The notes below the pieces were generated by a model that saw only the letters and a list, made by a program, of their open reading frames with translations, did no database searches and was not told the DNA's origin. A stretch of 33,052 nt of DNA, taken from IMG/VR virus record IMGVR_UViG_3300032322_000290, positions 1-33,052 of that record; one strand, 5' to 3'. The DNA comes from a virus. Below, piece by piece: positions 5,368 through 32,497 of this stretch. Made by a program: the position numbers and the translations under genes. Each line of letters opens with the position of its first letter. Positions within the stretch are counted from its first letter, which is position 1.

Positions 5368-5741
5368 GTAGCGGCTCATGTATTTATGAGACCGAAGAGG
5401 CAGCACAACGTGCTTGGTCAGCCATTAGAATAGCTATGGTTGATAGTTATAACGATTATCCACAAGCAGCTAAAGTAAACGCACAAAGAGCATTAAATAT
5501 TCGTGACCAATATAAACTAGGTTGCGGAACTGCGGTAGGATGGGCAAGAGCAAACCAACTCGCTAAAGGCGAAAACATTACAAGAGAAACAATTTCTAGA
5601 ATGGCTTCATTTGAACGTCATAGAGAAAATTCTAATGGCGACCCAAAGAAGGACTGCGGTGCTTTAATGTGGTTAGCATGGGGTGGAAGTGAAGGAATTG
5701 AATGGGCTCAAAGAAAACTTAAAGAATTAAAAGGTGAGTAG
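5328..5741 (+). CDS. Two-module conserved phage protein (often joined to prohead proteins elsewhere)
   Basis: Residues 1-35 (MPVIKCSNSKYRIGSGSCIY) form a short module seen at the start of many phage proteins. Residues about 40-137 carry YPQAAKVNAQRALNI, GCGTAVGWARANQLAKGE, ISRMASFERHR and CGALMWLAWGGSEGIEWA. To my recollection this second module is commonly fused to, or near, prohead protease or portal proteins in Bacteroidota and other phages. Here it stands alone directly before the holin. Two Cys (GCG and DCG) may pair or bind metal. It overlaps the glycosyltransferase gene by 40 nt; the start is set by the conserved N-terminal module. Confidence 0.65.
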   Translation: MPVIKCSNSKYRIGSGSCIYETEEAAQRAWSAIRIAMVDSYNDYPQAAKVNAQRALNIRDQYKLGCGTAVGWARANQLAKGENITRETISRMASFERHRENSNGDPKKDCGALMWLAWGGSEGIEWAQRKLKELKGE

Positions 5742-6012
5742 ATTAGAAGAACTAGGGATAAACTTAGGTTTATCTGTTGCAGGTTTTTTTGGTTCGGTCT
5801 TTTTTATAGAGAAGGGAAAAGACTTGCGAGAAACTTTGGTAGCTATGTGCGGAGGAGTTGCTTCTGCTAATTACTTAACACCTGTTGTTAGCGACTGGTT
5901 CGGAATAGATAAGATTAACCATCAATTTTCAGTAGCCTTTATTTTAGGTTTTATGGGATTGAAGGGAGTTGAAAGAATGGCTCATAAATTTTTTAACCAA
6001 AAATCAAAATAA
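5734..6012 (+). CDS. Putative holin
   Basis: This 92-residue protein has hydrophobic segments at about 8-26, 35-53 and 64-80, with a basic C-terminus (HKFFNQKSK), the profile of a class I holin that makes inner-membrane holes at the time of lysis. The start is GTG 5734, overlapping the upstream gene by 8 nt; its stop is shared with the next start in TAATG. It sits directly before a second small membrane protein and the endolysin, the classic lysis cassette order. Family membership is by hydropathy and context only. Confidence 0.65.
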   Translation: MSRLEELGINLGLSVAGFFGSVFFIEKGKDLRETLVAMCGGVASANYLTPVVSDWFGIDKINHQFSVAFILGFMGLKGVERMAHKFFNQKSK

Positions 6013-6167
6013 TGAAAGAGTATTTGCAAAACATTAAGACAACTCTATTCGGTGCGATTGCAGGACTTCCTTTGCTTTTGGAAGGTATTACTACAAAGAA
6101 TTGGGAAAGAGCCTTAGAAGGTCTAGGAATCCTTTTAATAGGAATCTTTGCTAAAGATGCGAAGTGA
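6012..6167 (+). CDS. Small membrane protein, 51 aa (second holin or antiholin candidate)
   Basis: ATG 6012 overlaps the holin stop (TAATG) and the stop TGA at 6165-6167 overlaps the endolysin gene by 11 nt. The product has two short hydrophobic helices, TLFGAIAGLPLLLEG (about 11-25) and ALEGLGILLIGIFA (about 34-47), separated by a polar turn. Similar two-helix peptides beside endolysins occur in other Bacteroidota phages. It could be the real holin, an antiholin, or an accessory lysis protein. Confidence 0.7.
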   Translation: MKEYLQNIKTTLFGAIAGLPLLLEGITTKNWERALEGLGILLIGIFAKDAK

Positions 6168-6663
6168 TAAAATCACAATAGAACGAATAGCGTTGCTTCA
6201 TCCCAAATTAAGGGATGAGGCTTTAGCTATTTATGATGAAATATGCGAATCATTAACCAATAGTGTTTGTAGGTTTTCTTATACGCTTAGAACGTTTTCA
6301 GAGCAAGACAAATTATTTGCACAGGGTAGGACTACAAAAGGTGCTAAGGTTACAAATGCTAGAGGTGGATTTAGTTATCACAATTATGGTCTAGCTTTAG
6401 ATATAGTCCTTCTTTTAGATAAAGATAAAAATGGATTATATGAAAGTGCGGTTTGGGATGTCAATGGTGATTTTGATAGAGATGGTAAAGCAGATTGGAT
6501 AGAGGTCGTTAGTATTTTTAAACAATTCGGATGGGAGTGGGGAGGAGATTGGAGGTTTGTAGATAACCCACATTTTCAAAAAACATTTGGTTATTCAGTA
6601 AGACAATTGCTTGATTTACATACTAGAGGAAAAGTAGATAAGAACGGATATGTTCTGATATGA
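6157..6663 (+). CDS. Endolysin, L-alanyl-D-glutamate peptidase type (M15C/VanY-like)
   Basis: The 168-residue protein carries the M15 metallopeptidase motifs: SYHNYGLALDIVLL gives the SxHxxGxAxD zinc site with H75 and D82, and WRFVDNPHFQ gives the third zinc ligand H139; the Trp-rich GWEWGGDWR before it is typical of the family. It would cut the peptide stems of peptidoglycan for host lysis. No signal peptide is visible, consistent with release through a holin. I choose ATG 6157, 11 nt inside the small membrane gene; TTG 6148 is the other option. It is ATGA-coupled to the next gene. Confidence 0.9.
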   Translation: MRSDKITIERIALLHPKLRDEALAIYDEICESLTNSVCRFSYTLRTFSEQDKLFAQGRTTKGAKVTNARGGFSYHNYGLALDIVLLLDKDKNGLYESAVWDVNGDFDRDGKADWIEVVSIFKQFGWEWGGDWRFVDNPHFQKTFGYSVRQLLDLHTRGKVDKNGYVLI

Positions 6664-8133: not shown

Positions 8134-8396
8134 GAAAGCACACTAAGATTTACATGGACTACTTCGGATATAGCAAAGAAGATTTTATTTCATGTGAGGT
8201 ATGCGGTAGACGAGCCAATGATACACACCATCTAGATTGCAGAGGAATGGGAGGAAGCAAAGACAAGGATAAGATAGAAAACCTTATGGCAGTTTGTAGA
8301 GAATGTCATATAAAATACGGAGATAAAAAAGAGTATATGGATTTCCTAAAAGAGAAGCATCAACAATTTATAGATAGCTATGGAAAGTTCTACTAA
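8130..8396 (+). CDS. HNH endonuclease
   Basis: The 88-residue protein shows C22-x2-C25, the catalytic THHLDCRGMGG (His-His), KIENLMAVCRECHIKYG with a second Cys pair and final His. This is the zinc-stabilised HNH (beta-beta-alpha-metal) nuclease. Small HNH proteins near terminase genes assist DNA packaging in cos and some pac phages. Here two genes separate it from the small terminase. It is ATGA-coupled upstream and overlaps the next gene by 17 nt. Confidence 0.85.
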   Translation: MRKHTKIYMDYFGYSKEDFISCEVCGRRANDTHHLDCRGMGGSKDKDKIENLMAVCRECHIKYGDKKEYMDFLKEKHQQFIDSYGKFY

Positions 8397-8889
8397 CTAT
8401 ATTCATCCTACTGCTATCATTTATGATAACGTAGTTATGGGAGAACATAATTACATAGGTGCTTATTGTGTAATAGGAGCACCTGCAGAGCATAAAGGTA
8501 ATTGGGGTACAACTAGCGACATAGTAGTTATCGGTGATAACAATGTTTTTACTGGATTAGTAACTATTGACGGAGGAATGGATGACGTGACCTACATAGG
8601 AGATAACAATTTCTTTATGAAGCATTCACACATTGGGCACGATTGTCAAATAATGGATAATGTTATAATTAGTTGTGGAGCAAAGATAGGAGGACATTCA
8701 ATAATAGATAGTAACGTAAACATAGGATTAAACGCAGTCATTCATCAGAGGCAATTTATTGCTAAAGGTTGTATGATAGGTATGGGTTCAGTAGTTACTA
8801 AAAAACTAGTAACCGAACCTTATACTAAATATGCAGGTAATCCAGCTAAATACTTAGGACACAATGAAAGCGGCAATCGTACTACTTGA
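8380..8889 (+). CDS. LpxA-like left-handed beta-helix acyltransferase
   Basis: Hexapeptide-repeat (LbetaH) structure is clear: IHPTAII opening, then repeated (V/I)-G-x-x-(N)-x-(I/V) units. Aligned by eye to E. coli LpxA, the region HSHIGHDCQI matches NAHIAHDCTV, placing H84 and H87 at LpxA H122 and catalytic H125; KIGGHSI puts H106 at H144, and AVIHQRQ puts H122 near H160. The protein (169 aa) ends after the helix, lacking LpxA's C-terminal helical domain (262 aa in E. coli). It probably transfers an acyl or acetyl group to a sugar or sugar nucleotide. It overlaps the HNH gene and, by 26 nt, the GT gene. Confidence 0.85.
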   Translation: MESSTNYIHPTAIIYDNVVMGEHNYIGAYCVIGAPAEHKGNWGTTSDIVVIGDNNVFTGLVTIDGGMDDVTYIGDNNFFMKHSHIGHDCQIMDNVIISCGAKIGGHSIIDSNVNIGLNAVIHQRQFIAKGCMIGMGSVVTKKLVTEPYTKYAGNPAKYLGHNESGNRTT

Positions 8890-9502
8890 TTATCTAAGAC
8901 ATCAACATACTGCACAAGCAGTAGCTAGTTTTCCATTAGGAAACTATCCTTATGATATGTTTACCATAGATAAGAAAGGAATAGCGGCTGCATTAAACGA
9001 AGGGATAAGAAAGACCAAAGACTATGACATTGTAGCTTTTTGTGGGAATGATATAGTAATGCCTAACAACTGGTTACTAATGGCAGTAGAGCATATTCAA
9101 GCAATACCAGAAACGGGTATGTGCGGAATCTATTGCGTAGAAACTCTACCAAAGACAGAAGTAATAAACGGAATAGAAGTACACCCAACATGGGCAACAT
9201 TCGGAAATGTTATTATACCTAGAAAAGCAATAGATAGTGTAGGATATTTTAATGAGGCATACGACCCATACGGAATGCAGGATAGCGATTACGGACTAAG
9301 GCTTACACAACTAGGATTTAAATCTTACTATATAAAAGGTTTACAAAGCCAACATATAGGACATGACGTAGGAGAGCAGACAGATTACAGAAAGATGAAG
9401 GATGAAGGATTAAACAAGGCAGGAGCAATCTGGTCAGAATATACTAAACTATACGAAGAATCAAATAACTATACAATATTTTACGATGAGTACAGTAGGT
9501 AG
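8864..9502 (+). CDS. Glycosyltransferase, GT-A fold (GT2-like)
   Basis: The 212-residue protein starts with a Rossmann-like strand (AAIVLLDYLR), then AAALNEGIRK and FCGNDIVMPNNWLL (NDI at 62-64 in the DxD position binding metal and the sugar nucleotide). Residues about 130-158, GYFNEAYDPYGMQDSDYGLRLTQLGF, match the acceptor-side ED/DxDYxxR motif of GT2 enzymes. A single domain without membrane segments suggests a soluble enzyme. It overlaps the acyltransferase gene by 26 nt and the small terminase by 17 nt, so it is co-expressed with packaging genes. Confidence 0.8.
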   Translation: MKAAIVLLDYLRHQHTAQAVASFPLGNYPYDMFTIDKKGIAAALNEGIRKTKDYDIVAFCGNDIVMPNNWLLMAVEHIQAIPETGMCGIYCVETLPKTEVINGIEVHPTWATFGNVIIPRKAIDSVGYFNEAYDPYGMQDSDYGLRLTQLGFKSYYIKGLQSQHIGHDVGEQTDYRKMKDEGLNKAGAIWSEYTKLYEESNNYTIFYDEYSR

Positions 9503-9878
9503 ACCAACTAAATATAAAGAAGAGTATTGCCAAATGCTAATAGACCACATGGCAGAAGGTTATTCTTTTGAATCCTTTGGAGGAATTATAGAGGTAGATG
9601 AAACAACTTTATACGAATGGGAGAAGGTGCATGAAGAATTTTCCCTCTCCAAGAGGATAGGAACTCAAAAAAGTATGGTTTGGTGGGAGAAAATAGGGAG
9701 AAGCGGAATGATAAACGAGATACCATTCTTTAACGATAGAATCTGGAGATTAAACATGATTAACAGATTTAGAAGTAAATGGAGTGATGGTACTAAGAAC
9801 GAGAATAACGATAAAGTAAAAACAGAAATAGTTGTTAGATACGAAGGAGATACCGATAACGCTGAAGAAACCACATAA
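9486..9878 (+). CDS. Terminase small subunit
   Basis: The N-terminus MSTVGRPTKYKEEYCQML with a following helix-turn-helix (SFESFGGIIEVDETTLYEWEK) is the standard start of small terminases, which recognise the packaging site and deliver it to the large subunit. Residues about 55-100 are helical with Trp-rich positions; the C-terminus is acidic. At 130 aa it is of usual size. It directly precedes the large subunit, overlapping its frame by up to 47 nt. Confidence 0.85.
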   Translation: MSTVGRPTKYKEEYCQMLIDHMAEGYSFESFGGIIEVDETTLYEWEKVHEEFSLSKRIGTQKSMVWWEKIGRSGMINEIPFFNDRIWRLNMINRFRSKWSDGTKNENNDKVKTEIVVRYEGDTDNAEETT

Positions 9879-11010
9879 GGCACAGAGGCAAGTCTTAGAT
9901 AGTAAGGCTAGGTTTATTGTGTTAATGTGTGGGCGAAGGTGGGGTAAATCTCTTATCTCGCAGAATATTTCTATACAAGATGCCTTACAAGGTAAACTAG
10001 TAGCTTACATAACTCCTACCTATCAACTAGCTAAAGTGTTCTTTGAGGACATGAGTAAGTTAATTCCAACAGAAGCAGCAACTATAAATAAATCAGATTT
10101 AACTTTCCATTTTGTAACAGGTGGGGTAATACGTTTCTTTACAGGAGAGAAGCTAGATAACCTAAGAGGTCAGAAATTCCATAGAGCAATACTAGACGAA
10201 GCACCTTATATCAAGAACCTAGAGCATGGTTGGTTAAACTCAATTAGACCTACTCTAACAGACTTTAAAGGTTCTGCTATATTCGTTTCTACCCCTAGAG
10301 GAAAAGATTATTTTTATTCTCTATTCTCAAAGCAAGGTGAAGCTAATTGGGAGTCTTTTAAGTTTACTACTTATGATAATCCACATATAGACAAAGCGGA
10401 AATAGACGAAGCTAGAAGGCAGTTACCTGCACCAGTATTTGAGCAGGAGTATCTAGCTAACCCAATGGAGAACGCTGCTAATCCTTTTGGGTCAGAGAAC
10501 ATAAAGGCTTGTATTAAACCACTAAGTAACCAAGAGCCTGTGTGTTTTGGAATAGACCTAGCCAAAAGTTATGACTGGTCGGTAATAATAGGACTAGATG
10601 CAGGAGGGAATGTTTGCTACCTAGACAGATTTCAGAAAGACTGGCATACAACTAAACAAGCTATCTTAAAGCTACCTAGAAAACCTATCTTGCTAGATAG
10701 CACAGGAGTAGGTGACCCAATATTTGAGGAACTACAAAGAGCAGGTCTTATGGTTGAGGGATTAAAGTTTACTAGCAATTCTAAGCAGCAGCTAATGGTA
10801 GGACTTCAGAACGCAATACATAGTAAATCAATAGGTTACCCAGACGGAGTTATAGTAAACGAGTTAGATGTATTTGAATATCAGTTTACGGCTAGTGGGG
10901 TTAAGTATTCTGCACCTTCAGGCTTTAACGATGATGCTATTATGTCACTTTCTTTAGCGTGGCAGTGCTATTCTCAAAGAATGGGTACTGGTAAGTATAG
11001 TTTCTTATAA
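9832..11010 (+). CDS. terL: Terminase large subunit (packaging ATPase/nuclease)
   Basis: Walker A MCGRRWGKS (about 32-40), Walker B HRAILDEAP (about 117-125) and the nuclease metal residues in GIDLAKSYDWS (D242), LLDSTGVGD (D289) and FNDDAIMSLSLAW (D367/D368) are all present. The enzyme translocates DNA into proheads and cuts it. No ATG lies near the expected N-terminus (PHKAQRQVLDSKARFIVLM). The listed start is TTG 9832; an in-frame ATA at 9856 sits 6 nt after AGGAG (9845-9849), a rare Shine-Dalgarno-like site here, and would give a more family-like start. Length about 384-392 aa. Confidence 0.95.
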   Translation: MLDTKEIPITLKKPHKAQRQVLDSKARFIVLMCGRRWGKSLISQNISIQDALQGKLVAYITPTYQLAKVFFEDMSKLIPTEAATINKSDLTFHFVTGGVIRFFTGEKLDNLRGQKFHRAILDEAPYIKNLEHGWLNSIRPTLTDFKGSAIFVSTPRGKDYFYSLFSKQGEANWESFKFTTYDNPHIDKAEIDEARRQLPAPVFEQEYLANPMENAANPFGSENIKACIKPLSNQEPVCFGIDLAKSYDWSVIIGLDAGGNVCYLDRFQKDWHTTKQAILKLPRKPILLDSTGVGDPIFEELQRAGLMVEGLKFTSNSKQQLMVGLQNAIHSKSIGYPDGVIVNELDVFEYQFTASGVKYSAPSGFNDDAIMSLSLAWQCYSQRMGTGKYSFL

Positions 11011-21897: not shown

Positions 21898-21925
21898 AGC
21901 CCTTGCAAGTGCAGGGGCTTTTTTT
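21898..21925 (+). terminator. Intrinsic terminator after the tail tube gene
   Basis: AGCCCTTGCA (21898-21907) faces TGCAGGGGCT (21910-21919), complementary with one G-T wobble, and is followed by T7 (21919-21925). The closing loop would be short, so the innermost pairs may open. It ends the tail tube transcript. Confidence 0.85.
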
Positions 21926-21959
21926 GTTAATTACCTTTGGTTTGAGCATTTATATAAGA

Positions 21960-22334
21960 ATGATACAATTAACTAAAGGAGCAACGCAATTCATCTATTT
22001 GACCTTAACGGAAAAGCAAACGTTAACGAATCCTAATTACTTGTTCGTGTTTAAAAATAGGTCTACTAATACAGAGGTAAAGTTTGTATTATTAAACGCT
22101 GCTGATTTATCTTTGTATAAAGACAGATATAATAAATTTAGTATAAAGTCAGATAAATATTTTTCAAGCAAACCTAGAGGGCAGTATAGCTATTCAGTTT
22201 ACCAACAAACTAGCACTTCAAATACCGATATAACAGGACTAACAGAATTAGAGAGTGGGATAATGTGGCTGAATGAAACAGAAAATGTTTATACTGAATA
22301 TCAAACTAATGATACATTTAAAGTAAGACAATGA
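21960..22334 (+). CDS. Conserved virion-associated protein, 124 aa
   Basis: I start at ATG 21960; the longer frame from 21903 begins in the terminator and is unlikely. The protein is beta-rich: IQLTKGATQFIYLTLTEKQTL, YLFVFKNRSTNTEVKFVLL, YKDRYNKFSI, GQYSYSVYQQTS. This pattern of a small beta-sandwich protein just before the portal recurs in Bacteroidota phages. Possibly a head or tail decoration protein. TACCTTTG at 21932 resembles a -7 element, but no -33 partner is placed correctly. ATGA-coupled to the portal gene. Confidence 0.6.
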   Translation: MIQLTKGATQFIYLTLTEKQTLTNPNYLFVFKNRSTNTEVKFVLLNAADLSLYKDRYNKFSIKSDKYFSSKPRGQYSYSVYQQTSTSNTDITGLTELESGIMWLNETENVYTEYQTNDTFKVRQ

Positions 22335-31210: not shown

Positions 31211-31345
31211 ATGGATACTATAACAACTTTGAAGGCGAAAGCCTATGATTTATTAGCTAATTTGGAATACATTCAAAAACAACTGCAAGAGGTTAACCAA
31301 CAGATTGCAGAAGAAATGAAAAAGAATGAGGATTCTTCTAATTAG
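31211..31345 (+). CDS. Small coiled-coil protein, 44 aa
   Basis: ATG 31211 gives 44 residues with a continuous helix: TTLKAKAYDLLANLEYIQKQ, then LQEVNQQIAEEMKK, with heptad hydrophobic spacing. Very similar short coiled-coil proteins sit near lysis or tail genes in other Bacteroidota phages. It overlaps the spanin gene by 20 nt. Confidence 0.75.
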   Translation: MDTITTLKAKAYDLLANLEYIQKQLQEVNQQIAEEMKKNEDSSN

Positions 31346-31817
31346 TATTTTATTTTTTAGTTGTGTTTCTGAAAAGAAGCTAGTTAAATTTTGTGCAGAG
31401 AAGTATCCATGCGATACTACTATTGTCAGGGTTGATACTAGCTTTTTTTCGGATACGCAGTATATCAAGACTGAAACAATAGATACATTTATTGTAACGC
31501 AAAATAAGACGATTCTAGAGGTTAAATATGTAGAATCAACTGCTAAGCTACAAATAGCAGAAAAGGGTCATAAAAAGGCTCTAAATGAGTTATACGATAA
31601 CAACATGGCTATTATCCTAGAGTTAAATAGAACTATGGATAAAATGGCTAGAGATACTGCTAAACTATCAGATAAGTTAAAGAAACTAGAAAAGGAAAAG
31701 ATAGAGTTAAAAACAAAGTTAAAGAGTGCGAATAACTTTAAATGGTCAGTAATTACAATAGGTTTACTTTTGTTACTCATTGTGTTTTATAAGTGGTTTA
31801 AGCCCCGACTTTTCTAA
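31326..31817 (+). CDS. Single-gene spanin (u-spanin): outer-membrane lipoprotein with C-terminal inner-membrane helix
   Basis: Residues 1-13 (MRILLISILFFSC) form a short lipoprotein signal with the lipidated Cys at 13, placing the mature N-terminus in the outer membrane. Residues about 140-156 (WSVITIGLLLLLIVFY) are a membrane helix with a basic end (KWFKPRLF). Between them is a coiled coil, e.g. ARDTAKLSDKLKKLEKEKIE. This two-anchor design is the definition of a u-spanin (as in phage T1 gp11), which fuses inner and outer membranes after endolysin action. It is 163 aa and overlaps the coiled-coil gene by 20 nt. Confidence 0.8.
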   Translation: MRILLISILFFSCVSEKKLVKFCAEKYPCDTTIVRVDTSFFSDTQYIKTETIDTFIVTQNKTILEVKYVESTAKLQIAEKGHKKALNELYDNNMAIILELNRTMDKMARDTAKLSDKLKKLEKEKIELKTKLKSANNFKWSVITIGLLLLLIVFYKWFKPRLF

Positions 31818-31832
31818 GTTAGGGCTTTTTTT
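31800..31832 (+). terminator. Intrinsic terminator after the spanin gene
   Basis: AAGCCC (31800-31805) pairs with GGGCTT (31822-31827), with an inner ACTT/AAGT stem (31808-31811 and 31816-31819), followed by T7 (31826-31832). The spanin stop codon lies in the loop region. It separates the late region from the early promoter. Confidence 0.85.
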
Positions 31833-31906: not shown

Positions 31907-32497
31907 ATGAACACAATCAAAATCAAAGGCAAGGACTATGTCACAGTCAACGAACGCCTAAAGCATCTAGCAGAGAATTATCAGTATTCAATAAAGACAG
32001 ATTACCAGTATTTTCCAGAAAGAAAAATGTGGGTAGTTAAAGCTACCTTAATGATTATCAAATCTGGAGCAAAGTTCATCTACACAGGTCTAGCACAAGA
32101 GATAGAATCCAACAATTACAAAGAGGTTAACCATACTTCAGCATTAGAAAACGCAGAAACATCCGCAGTAGGTAGAGCATGTGCTATGGCTGGAATAGGA
32201 ATAGACGGAGGGATTGCATCTGCAGAAGAAGTTAACAAGGCTATTAACCGAGTAGACGAAGTAGGAGAAGAAGCTAGGCTTAAACTTTTATCTATGTTGG
32301 AAAACACAACCTACGAGGAAAGACAAAAAGAAATCTTAGCTTTAAGGATAGAGGATATTAAAACGGCTGAAGAGTTTGACAAAGCCTATCAGAATTTAGA
32401 AATGAATCAAATACAAGACAAGGACAGAATTGCAATGGGTTTAAATTACAATCAGTCAGACATAAAAAAAGCACTCAATGTTGGAAAAACTAAATGA
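31907..32497 (+). CDS. Putative ssDNA annealing/binding recombination protein
   Basis: The 196-residue protein has KATLMIIKSGAKFIYTGLAQE followed by SALENAETSAVGRACAMAGIG (about 78-98) and GGIASAEEVNKAI. The ETSAVGRAxAxxGIG...SAEEV pattern occurs in phage proteins placed with recombinases and SSBs that are thought to bind or anneal single strands (ERF/Rad52-like). The last third is charged and helical. It is the first gene of the early transcript, followed by two hypotheticals and the SSB-like protein. Function is inferred. Confidence 0.55.
   Translation: MNTIKIKGKDYVTVNERLKHLAENYQYSIKTDYQYFPERKMWVVKATLMIIKSGAKFIYTGLAQEIESNNYKEVNHTSALENAETSAVGRACAMAGIGIDGGIASAEEVNKAINRVDEVGEEARLKLLSMLENTTYEERQKEILALRIEDIKTAEEFDKAYQNLEMNQIQDKDRIAMGLNYNQSDIKKALNVGKTK

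What the first reader, a model, noticed from the sequence alone, without database searches (positions are those of the whole stretch)
31326..31817. Unimolecular spanin separated by about 7.7 kb of the circular map from the holin-endolysin cassette
One protein holds both a lipoprotein signal (C13) and a C-terminal membrane helix with coiled coil between them, a complete u-spanin. It lies after the fibres, whereas the holin, small membrane protein and endolysin are at 5734-6663. The two parts of lysis thus sit on different transcripts, with the spanin just before the early promoter. Most described spanins come from Proteobacteria phages, so a clear Bacteroidota example is useful.
Basis: partly seen in the sequence, partly recalled or inferred. 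Interest (0 to 1): 0.55.

Follow-up and report, generated by a model that had tools for sequence, protein, structure and literature searches.

The report
Detached one-piece phage lysis spanin
A virus that probably infects Bacteroidota bacteria carries, far from its other lysis genes, a gene for a single protein that appears to be anchored at one end in the outer and at the other in the inner membrane and most likely breaks the outer membrane when the cell bursts; the kind of protein is known, but this family has a conserved cysteine and in some relatives shares one reading frame with a second membrane protein.

Summary
The 163-aa product of 31326-31817 has a lipobox (LFFS-C13), a coiled-coil-like helix and one C-terminal membrane helix. 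It is the only plausible lipoprotein found in six frames of a circular genome, and no second spanin candidate was found in the holin/endolysin cassette. The gap to the holin is about 6.8 kb (7.8 kb only to the end of the endolysin). Detachment is shared by close relatives: 0 of 14 loci with an endolysin at least 83% identical and enough flank have a u-spanin-like neighbour. A family of 37 distinct sequences (C13, C23, CA[DE]K[YF]P, E-x-T-A) ties the protein to lysis: members lie directly beside M15, GH19 or lysozyme-type endolysins, six of them beside a relative of the window's own endolysin. In seven members the spanin shares one open frame with a small two-helix membrane domain. That Bacteroidota phages use u-spanins is already in print, so the kind is known. 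Unusual are the invariant periplasmic cysteine (SpaninDB: 0 of 58 u-spanins have one), the helical periplasmic part (T1 gp11 family: predicted beta-rich) and the fused frame in relatives. Function is inferred, not tested; 'different transcripts' rests on a conserved terminator and a promoter-like site.

The parts
31326..31817 (+). u-spanin gene, 163 aa
31326..31364 (+). lipoprotein signal peptide (residues 1-12) and Cys13 to be lipidated, lipobox LFFS-C
   Evidence: C13 in 37 of 37 distinct family members (the family is defined by this alignment start)
31392..31409 (+). periplasmic cysteine motif C23-A-E-K-Y-P28
   Evidence: C23 and P28 in 37 of 37, partly by construction of the searches
31539..31739 (+). 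helical, coiled-coil-like periplasmic stalk (residues about 72-138)
   Evidence: AlphaFold2 helix 72-162, pLDDT 90 or more over most of residues 81-150; heptad-like moment
31743..31799 (+). C-terminal transmembrane helix (residues 140-158), followed by FKPRLF or less
31800..31827 (+). intrinsic terminator overlapping the 3' end of the spanin gene
   Evidence: hairpin -13.6 kcal/mol before a T run (z -1.87, 8 of 200 shuffles fold as well); two double compensatory changes in L010
31854..31886 (+). Bacteroidota-type promoter-like site TTG-N22-TATATTTG before the next gene
   Evidence: TATATTTG also in L007, L008, L010; consensus match only
31211..31345 (+). 44-aa small ORF overlapping the spanin start by 20 nt, possibly a tail-fibre chaperone
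   Evidence: weak phrog_1002 match, E 0.0046
31907..32497 (+). next gene (phrog_11717, unknown function); anchor for the syntenic relatives
5734..6012 (+). holin
   Evidence: phrog_2359 holin, E 5e-12
6012..6167 (+). 51-aa membrane protein; weak match to the N-domain fused to the spanin in relatives
   Evidence: hhalign probability 54%, E 1.3e-4
6148..6663 (+). M15 endolysin
   Evidence: PF13539 E 7.5e-17, phrog_2649 E 2.3e-28

Best explanation
31326-31817 encodes the phage's only spanin, a unimolecular one. Shown by sequence: signal peptide with lipobox, helical stalk, one C-terminal membrane helix with a short basic tail. Inferred: signal peptidase II cuts before Cys13; the lipidated N-end is sorted to the inner leaflet of the outer membrane (residues +2 to +5 are VSEK, no Asp at +2) and the C-terminal helix stays in the inner membrane. 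While the wall is whole the proteins are held apart by the mesh; after the holin (5734-6012) opens the inner membrane and the M15 endolysin (6148-6663) cuts the wall, the stalks collapse, bring the two membranes together, and the outer membrane fails. C23, ten residues after the lipid, may make a disulfide between two copies, as cysteines are thought to do in two-component spanins. The gene is the last before a terminator, so it is probably made with the fibre and other structural proteins, while the holin-endolysin genes follow the early-type block.
For: Architecture and uniqueness; conservation and selection; hits in 4 of 100 shuffled windows only. Link to lysis through homologs: in L052, L128, L130, L133 and L137 a family member starts at the stop of an M15 endolysin that is 62-66% identical to the window's, and in L118 (endolysin 60%) it follows one small membrane gene later. 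In L116 the member overlaps a GH19 endolysin by 4 nt. In 13 of 13 loci L141-L153 it overlaps a lysozyme-type gene by 4 or 7 nt (Pfam run on L141 only: Phage_lysozyme E 1.2e-42). U-spanin-like ORFs lie within 300 nt of the M15 endolysin in 13 of 80 loci, 12 of them unlike the window protein plus L052, and in two cultured phages, Riemerella PT33 and Elizabethkingia TCUEAP1; the TCUEAP1 protein weakly matches Rz-like spanin PHROGs (best E 0.0014). Control: 0 of 5 Bacillus M15-endolysin regions has one on the endolysin's strand; one has an antisense hit. Helical models.
Against: No lysis experiment. No match to a spanin PHROG for this protein at E up to 1. In the window the gene is not beside the lysis genes. 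The lipobox has Phe at -3 and -2, looser than the consensus [LVI][ASTVI][GAS]C quoted in PMC6139136. AlphaFold2 gives low confidence for most of residues 29-68 and pTM 0.34. 67 of 80 endolysin loci show no u-spanin-like neighbour by the detector; of the six cultured Bacteroidota stretches fetched, three with flanks on both sides (phiSM, fF4, 1/32) gave none and one (CRP19) is cut at the endolysin.
Confidence: 0.85

Rival explanations
1. It is a membrane-spanning lipoprotein of another use, such as a superinfection-exclusion or receptor-masking protein, placed after the fibre genes as Cor/Llp-type genes often are (placement recalled, not searched).
For: It lies after the fibres and a possible fibre chaperone, away from the endolysin; a Cor PHROG (phrog_1119, E 0.0038) turns up for the unrelated TCUEAP1 protein, beside Rz-like spanin PHROGs.
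Against: Cor/Llp proteins have no C-terminal membrane helix (recalled). Homologs with the same motif lie in lysis cassettes, and no other spanin candidate was found in the genome.
Confidence: 0.07
2. It is the outer-membrane half of a split system whose inner-membrane partner is elsewhere, so the C-terminal helix only stabilises it.
For: Cellulophaga phage phiSM seems, by reading, to have an i-spanin-like gp13 overlapping a lipoprotein gp14 that has a weak C-terminal hydrophobic stretch. In the window one ORF, 21903-22334, has an N-terminal hydrophobic stretch, but only if a TTG start upstream of its first ATG is used.
Against: That ORF has no coiled-coil look and lies in the tail block; no other type II membrane protein of spanin size was seen among the + strand membrane-helix ORFs of 40 aa or more. 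All 37 distinct family members keep a C-terminal membrane helix.
Confidence: 0.05
3. The gene is a dispensable copy: outer-membrane lysis does not depend on it.
For: Detached from the cassette; residues 65-163 evolve faster than 1-64 in most pairs.
Against: Purifying selection in 15 of 15 pairs, both halves; C13, C23, P28, E70, T72 in 37 of 37; kept at the same place in phages whose proteins are only 25-40% identical.
Confidence: 0.03

Closest known systems
Unimolecular spanins, T1 gp11 type (SpaninDB; PMC6139136)
   Same: One protein with N-terminal lipoprotein signal and one C-terminal membrane helix; works with holin and endolysin
   Different: Here the periplasmic part is predicted largely helical and carries conserved Cys; the paper (section 13 read) reports beta prediction for the gp11 family and no periplasmic Cys in any of 58 u-spanins; T1 gp11 is in the cassette, this one is not
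Two-component spanins Rz/Rz1 (lambda)
   Same: Helical stalk and periplasmic cysteine, proposed there to form homotypic disulfides
   Different: One gene carries both anchors; no separate i-spanin or o-spanin found
Bacteroidota u-spanins in print: Cellulophaga phages Nekkels and Ingeline (PMC8776804); 'Bacteroidetes phages exclusively use USP' (PMC12596118)
   Same: Same architecture class and host phylum
   Different: Those sequences were not compared directly; five proteins of the window family have no tblastn match in the phage collection of 50,697 records
T4 pseT.3/pseT.2 spanins
   Same: Spanin genes not near holin and endolysin genes (Fig. 8 legend of PMC6139136, read)
   Different: Two-component
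phrog_5595 (unknown function, 243 columns)
   Same: Matches the fused relative P0002 over residues 4-111, across the membrane-domain/spanin junction, E 7.7e-9
   Different: Not among the matches of the window protein or of the window's 51-aa protein

Membership tests
Unimolecular spanin | N-terminal lipoprotein signal with lipobox | tested here: met
   LFFS-C13 after a hydrophobic segment, by a home-made rule; lipidation itself not testable
Unimolecular spanin | Single C-terminal transmembrane helix | tested here: met
   Residues 140-158 only, by hydropathy; a C-terminal helix in 37 of 37 members
Unimolecular spanin | Disrupts the outer membrane / complements a lambda Rz/Rz1 defect | not testable with these tools
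   No experiment
Unimolecular spanin | Genetic link to holin/endolysin (common, not required) | tested here: inconclusive
   Not met in the window; met in homologs L052, L116, L118, L128, L130, L133, L137, L141-L153
Unimolecular spanin, as described in SpaninDB | No periplasmic cysteine (reported for 58 of 58; a described property, not a definition) | tested here: not met
   C23 and C29 in the window; at least one in 37 of 37 members
Unimolecular spanin, as described in SpaninDB | Beta-rich periplasmic domain (described for the T1 gp11 family) | tested here: not met
   AlphaFold2: helix 72-162 confident, two 3-residue strands in the low-confidence part
Two-component spanin (i-spanin) | N-terminal membrane anchor, no lipobox | tested here: not met
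   Lipobox present, membrane helix C-terminal
Two-component spanin (o-spanin) | Lipoprotein without membrane helix, paired with an i-spanin gene | tested here: not met
   Has a membrane helix; no convincing i-spanin candidate found
Spanin PHROGs | Profile match | tested here: not met
   No spanin PHROG at E up to 1
Superinfection-exclusion lipoprotein (Cor/Llp) | Block of receptor use when expressed | not testable with these tools
   No experiment

The most novel reading that the evidence does not exclude
Bacteroidota phages have a separate class of spanin: a coiled-coil, single-protein spanin locked into disulfide-linked dimers by the cysteine just inside the outer membrane. In some relatives it is made as one polyprotein with a two-helix, holin-like membrane protein and is freed by signal peptidase II, so that lipoprotein maturation itself separates the two lysis proteins. 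The window lineage has the pair as separate genes, with the spanin at the end of the structural block.
Probability: 0.2. Interest if true: 0.7.

Novelty: new variant of a known kind. Interest (0 to 1): 0.45.

Why it matters
How a single-protein spanin ruptures membranes is unknown; the SpaninDB paper (2018) says there were no physiological or biochemical data on it and contrasts cysteine-free u-spanins with helical, disulfide-linked two-component spanins. A u-spanin family that is largely helical and has an invariant periplasmic cysteine crosses that divide and makes the disulfide question testable in one gene. The motif also gives a practical handle for naming proteins in Bacteroidota phages for which the family libraries searched here gave no name.

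Tried and rejected
A second spanin in the cassette: a six-frame search for lipobox ORFs of 30 aa or more found none there. Family libraries: no useful Pfam, PHROG or NCBIfam match for the window protein; the weak Pfam hits (Sec10_N, Synaptobrevin) are below cut-off and look like coiled-coil chance. Annotated relatives: no tblastn match in phages for P0001, P0002, P0003 or the L141 and L116 proteins and no megablast match for the window's first 24,999 bases. Bacterial genomes: two pattern-based scans, no relative. So the host phylum is inferred: the nearest M15 endolysins in phages are from Riemerella, Cellulophaga, Elizabethkingia and Flavobacterium phages at 41-67% (one such record is named Shigella phage Henu10, and by number most of the 127 matching records are Bacillus and Listeria phages, more distant), plus the TAnnTTTG site.

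Transcript claim: the generic promoter/terminator scans gave no excess of promoters and missed the terminator after the spanin, probably because of its mismatch. Homology of the window's 51-aa protein with the fused N-domain stayed weak (best tblastn E 0.019; hhalign probability 54%), so it is open. Fusion versus internal start is open: the linker is under purifying selection (pN below pS in 20 of 21 pairs; L117-L129 has no synonymous and one other change there), but all 7 complete fused frames have an ATG at residue 44-46. No structure search was run, since a single long helix would match by chance.

Dropped rows: L132 (motif match without a hydrophobic segment) from the family; L062/L063 (92-aa holin-like false positives) by the 120-aa limit; repeats of one contig or sequence. 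Of 127 endolysin-bearing phage records I fetched 11: 6 Bacteroidota, 5 Bacillus.

Full report
What is there. The record is a complete circular virus map (exact 123-bp terminal repeat). The frame 31326-31817 encodes 163 aa: a 12-residue signal segment ending in LFFS, Cys13, a short region with C23 and C29, a low-confidence part (most of 29-68), a long helix, and one membrane helix at about 140-158 near the C-terminus. The best AlphaFold2 model from 25 family members has mean pLDDT 72.7 and pTM 0.34; the helix 72-162 is confident over most of its length, the rest is not. The heptad-like hydrophobic moment of residues 67-138 is reached by 11 of 2,000 shuffles.

Chance and uniqueness. A detector that asks for a lipobox and one C-terminal membrane helix hits 4 of 100 dinucleotide shuffles of the window. 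Over the records then held it gave 40 hits on the + strand and 2 on the minus strand (several records are overlapping pieces of one contig). In the window only one sense-strand lipobox ORF of 30 aa or more was found. Five close relatives keep the protein without indels, and pN is below pS in 15 of 15 pairs both in residues 1-64 and in 65-163. Against the window, residues 1-64, with the cysteine motif, are the more conserved part in all five pairs (for example L002: pN 0.01 against 0.09).

Place. Holin 5734-6012 (phrog_2359), a 51-aa membrane protein 6012-6167 and an M15 endolysin 6148-6663 lie across the map's origin, 6,845 nt after the spanin's stop. In relatives with both genes on one contig the gap from spanin to endolysin is 7,794 (L007), 8,561 (L009) and 10,435 nt (L010), and about 7.3 kb in L045. 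Among 80 endolysin-anchored loci, 18 have at least 83% endolysin identity; 14 of these have 0.8 kb on both sides and 0 of 14 have an adjacent u-spanin-like ORF. Of the other 62, 52 have such flanks and 12 of 52 have one (L071 also has one but lacks the flank). So detachment is a feature of this lineage. A late-end place, within about 0.9 kb before a relative of the phrog_11717 gene, is kept in L011, L012-L015 and L017 and, by reading the neighbouring translations, in L120, L125 and L134, with proteins 25-40% identical to the window's.

Transcripts. After the gene a hairpin with a T run (31800-31827, -13.6 kcal/mol; 8 of 200 shuffles fold as well) is conserved and has two double compensatory changes in L010, which also gains one pair and loses the outermost one. 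TATATTTG stands before the next gene in the window and in L007, L008 and L010. These fit a late block that ends with the spanin and another block that starts after it. They do not prove separate transcripts: the combined promoter pattern is not in excess in the window (4 against 2.8 expected).

The family and its link to lysis. Searches with the protein, the neighbour gene, the endolysin, a motif and a fused relative give 38 sequences after removing repeats of one contig, 37 of them distinct, the window included (L132 dropped). C13, C23, P28, D43, T44, E70 and T72 are in 37 of 37, A73 in 35, K74 in 34. For members found, and probably for those, C23 is partly built into the search; for L011, L012-L015, L017 and L052, found through the neighbour gene or the endolysin, it is not. 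Members stand beside three endolysin types. M15: in L052, L128, L130, L133 and L137 the spanin frame starts at the endolysin's stop, in L118 one small gene later; these endolysins are 60-66% identical to the window's. GH19: L116, overlap of 4 nt. Lysozyme type: L141-L153, overlap of 4 or 7 nt in 13 of 13 (Pfam for L141). L117 and L129 have a DUF5675 gene two genes upstream (Pfam run on L117), whose role I cannot say; L122 has no endolysin recognised nearby by reading. The same spanin family beside a close relative of the window's own endolysin is the strongest evidence that the window protein is a lysis protein.

Fused relatives. In L052, L117, L128, L129, L130, L133 and L137 the frame begins with a two-helix domain and runs through a basic linker into the spanin's signal segment and lipobox; in L118 the same two parts are separate genes, 2229-2417 and 2485-2949. 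The order of charges would put the linker inside and the cysteine outside (inference). Linker codons evolve as translated sequence in 20 of 21 pairs. An ATG at residue 44-46 in 7 of 7 leaves an internal start equally possible. phrog_5595, of unknown function, spans the junction. The window's 51-aa protein aligns to this N-domain only weakly.

Cysteines more widely. Among the 13 loci with a u-spanin-like ORF within 300 nt of an M15 endolysin, 9 have at least one periplasmic Cys by the count (L071 and L072 carry the same-looking protein; L052 is a family member); the two cultured examples (L099, L101) have none. PMC6139136 reports none in 58 u-spanins and concludes that the disulfide constraint of two-component spanins does not apply to u-spanins (section 13 read). 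The window family does not follow that pattern; whether its cysteines are bridged is untested.

Known or new. Kind: known (u-spanin). PMC12596118 (passages read) says Bacteroidetes phages use only u-spanins; PMC8776804 (passages read) annotates two. PMC6139136 (section 15 read) lists B124-14 and P2559S/Y as spanin-less and B40-8 with i- and o-spanin about 1 kb apart, so the literature is not of one voice. PMC10136315 (passages read) mentions spanins among late genes of crAss-like phages. In the listings I saw no title or abstract start on cysteine-bearing u-spanins or on spanin-holin fusions; two searches showed only part of their hits, some listed papers with spanin mentions (for example PMC10367356) were not opened, and the library lacks most subscription journals. 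On this basis: new variant of a known kind, moderate interest.

Noticed in passing
L128 11729-12367 (-), L130 1805-2446 (-), L133 9907-10545, L137 3001-3639, L117 1970-2593, L129 1261-1884, L052 6595-7215: One open frame joins a two-helix membrane domain to a u-spanin with an internal lipobox: polyprotein cut by signal peptidase II, or internal ATG start.
   Followed up: partly
L100 (Cellulophaga phage phiSM) 12244-12525 and 12428-12796: By reading, gp13 looks like an i-spanin (N-terminal helix plus coiled coil) and overlaps gp14, a lipoprotein, right after the endolysin: possibly a two-component pair in a Bacteroidota phage, against 'exclusively u-spanin' in print.
   Followed up: partly
L101 (Elizabethkingia phage TCUEAP1) 19540-20067: A u-spanin-like ORF overlaps the annotated genes on both sides (the second is the M15 endolysin) and has no CDS of its own in the record's table.
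   Followed up: partly
L103 (Flavobacterium phage 1/32) 20527-21192: The gene right after the endolysin begins with a hydrophobic stretch with Gln before the Cys (no lipobox) and, by eye, ends with another hydrophobic stretch; nature unclear.
   Followed up: no
window 31211-31345: A 44-aa small ORF, with counterparts before the spanin in L003, L011 and L012, weakly matches a tail-fibre chaperone PHROG and overlaps the spanin start by 20 nt.
   Followed up: partly
record OQ791282 (Shigella phage Henu10): A record named as a Shigella phage carries the same M15 endolysin as Riemerella phages, at the same coordinates as vB_RanS_PT15; the host label may be wrong.
   Followed up: no
window 8380-9502: A hexapeptide-acyltransferase-like gene (by reading) and a glycosyltransferase-like gene (8864-9502: phrog_2456, E 2.9e-6) lie between the endolysin block and the terminase (9832-11010).
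   Followed up: no
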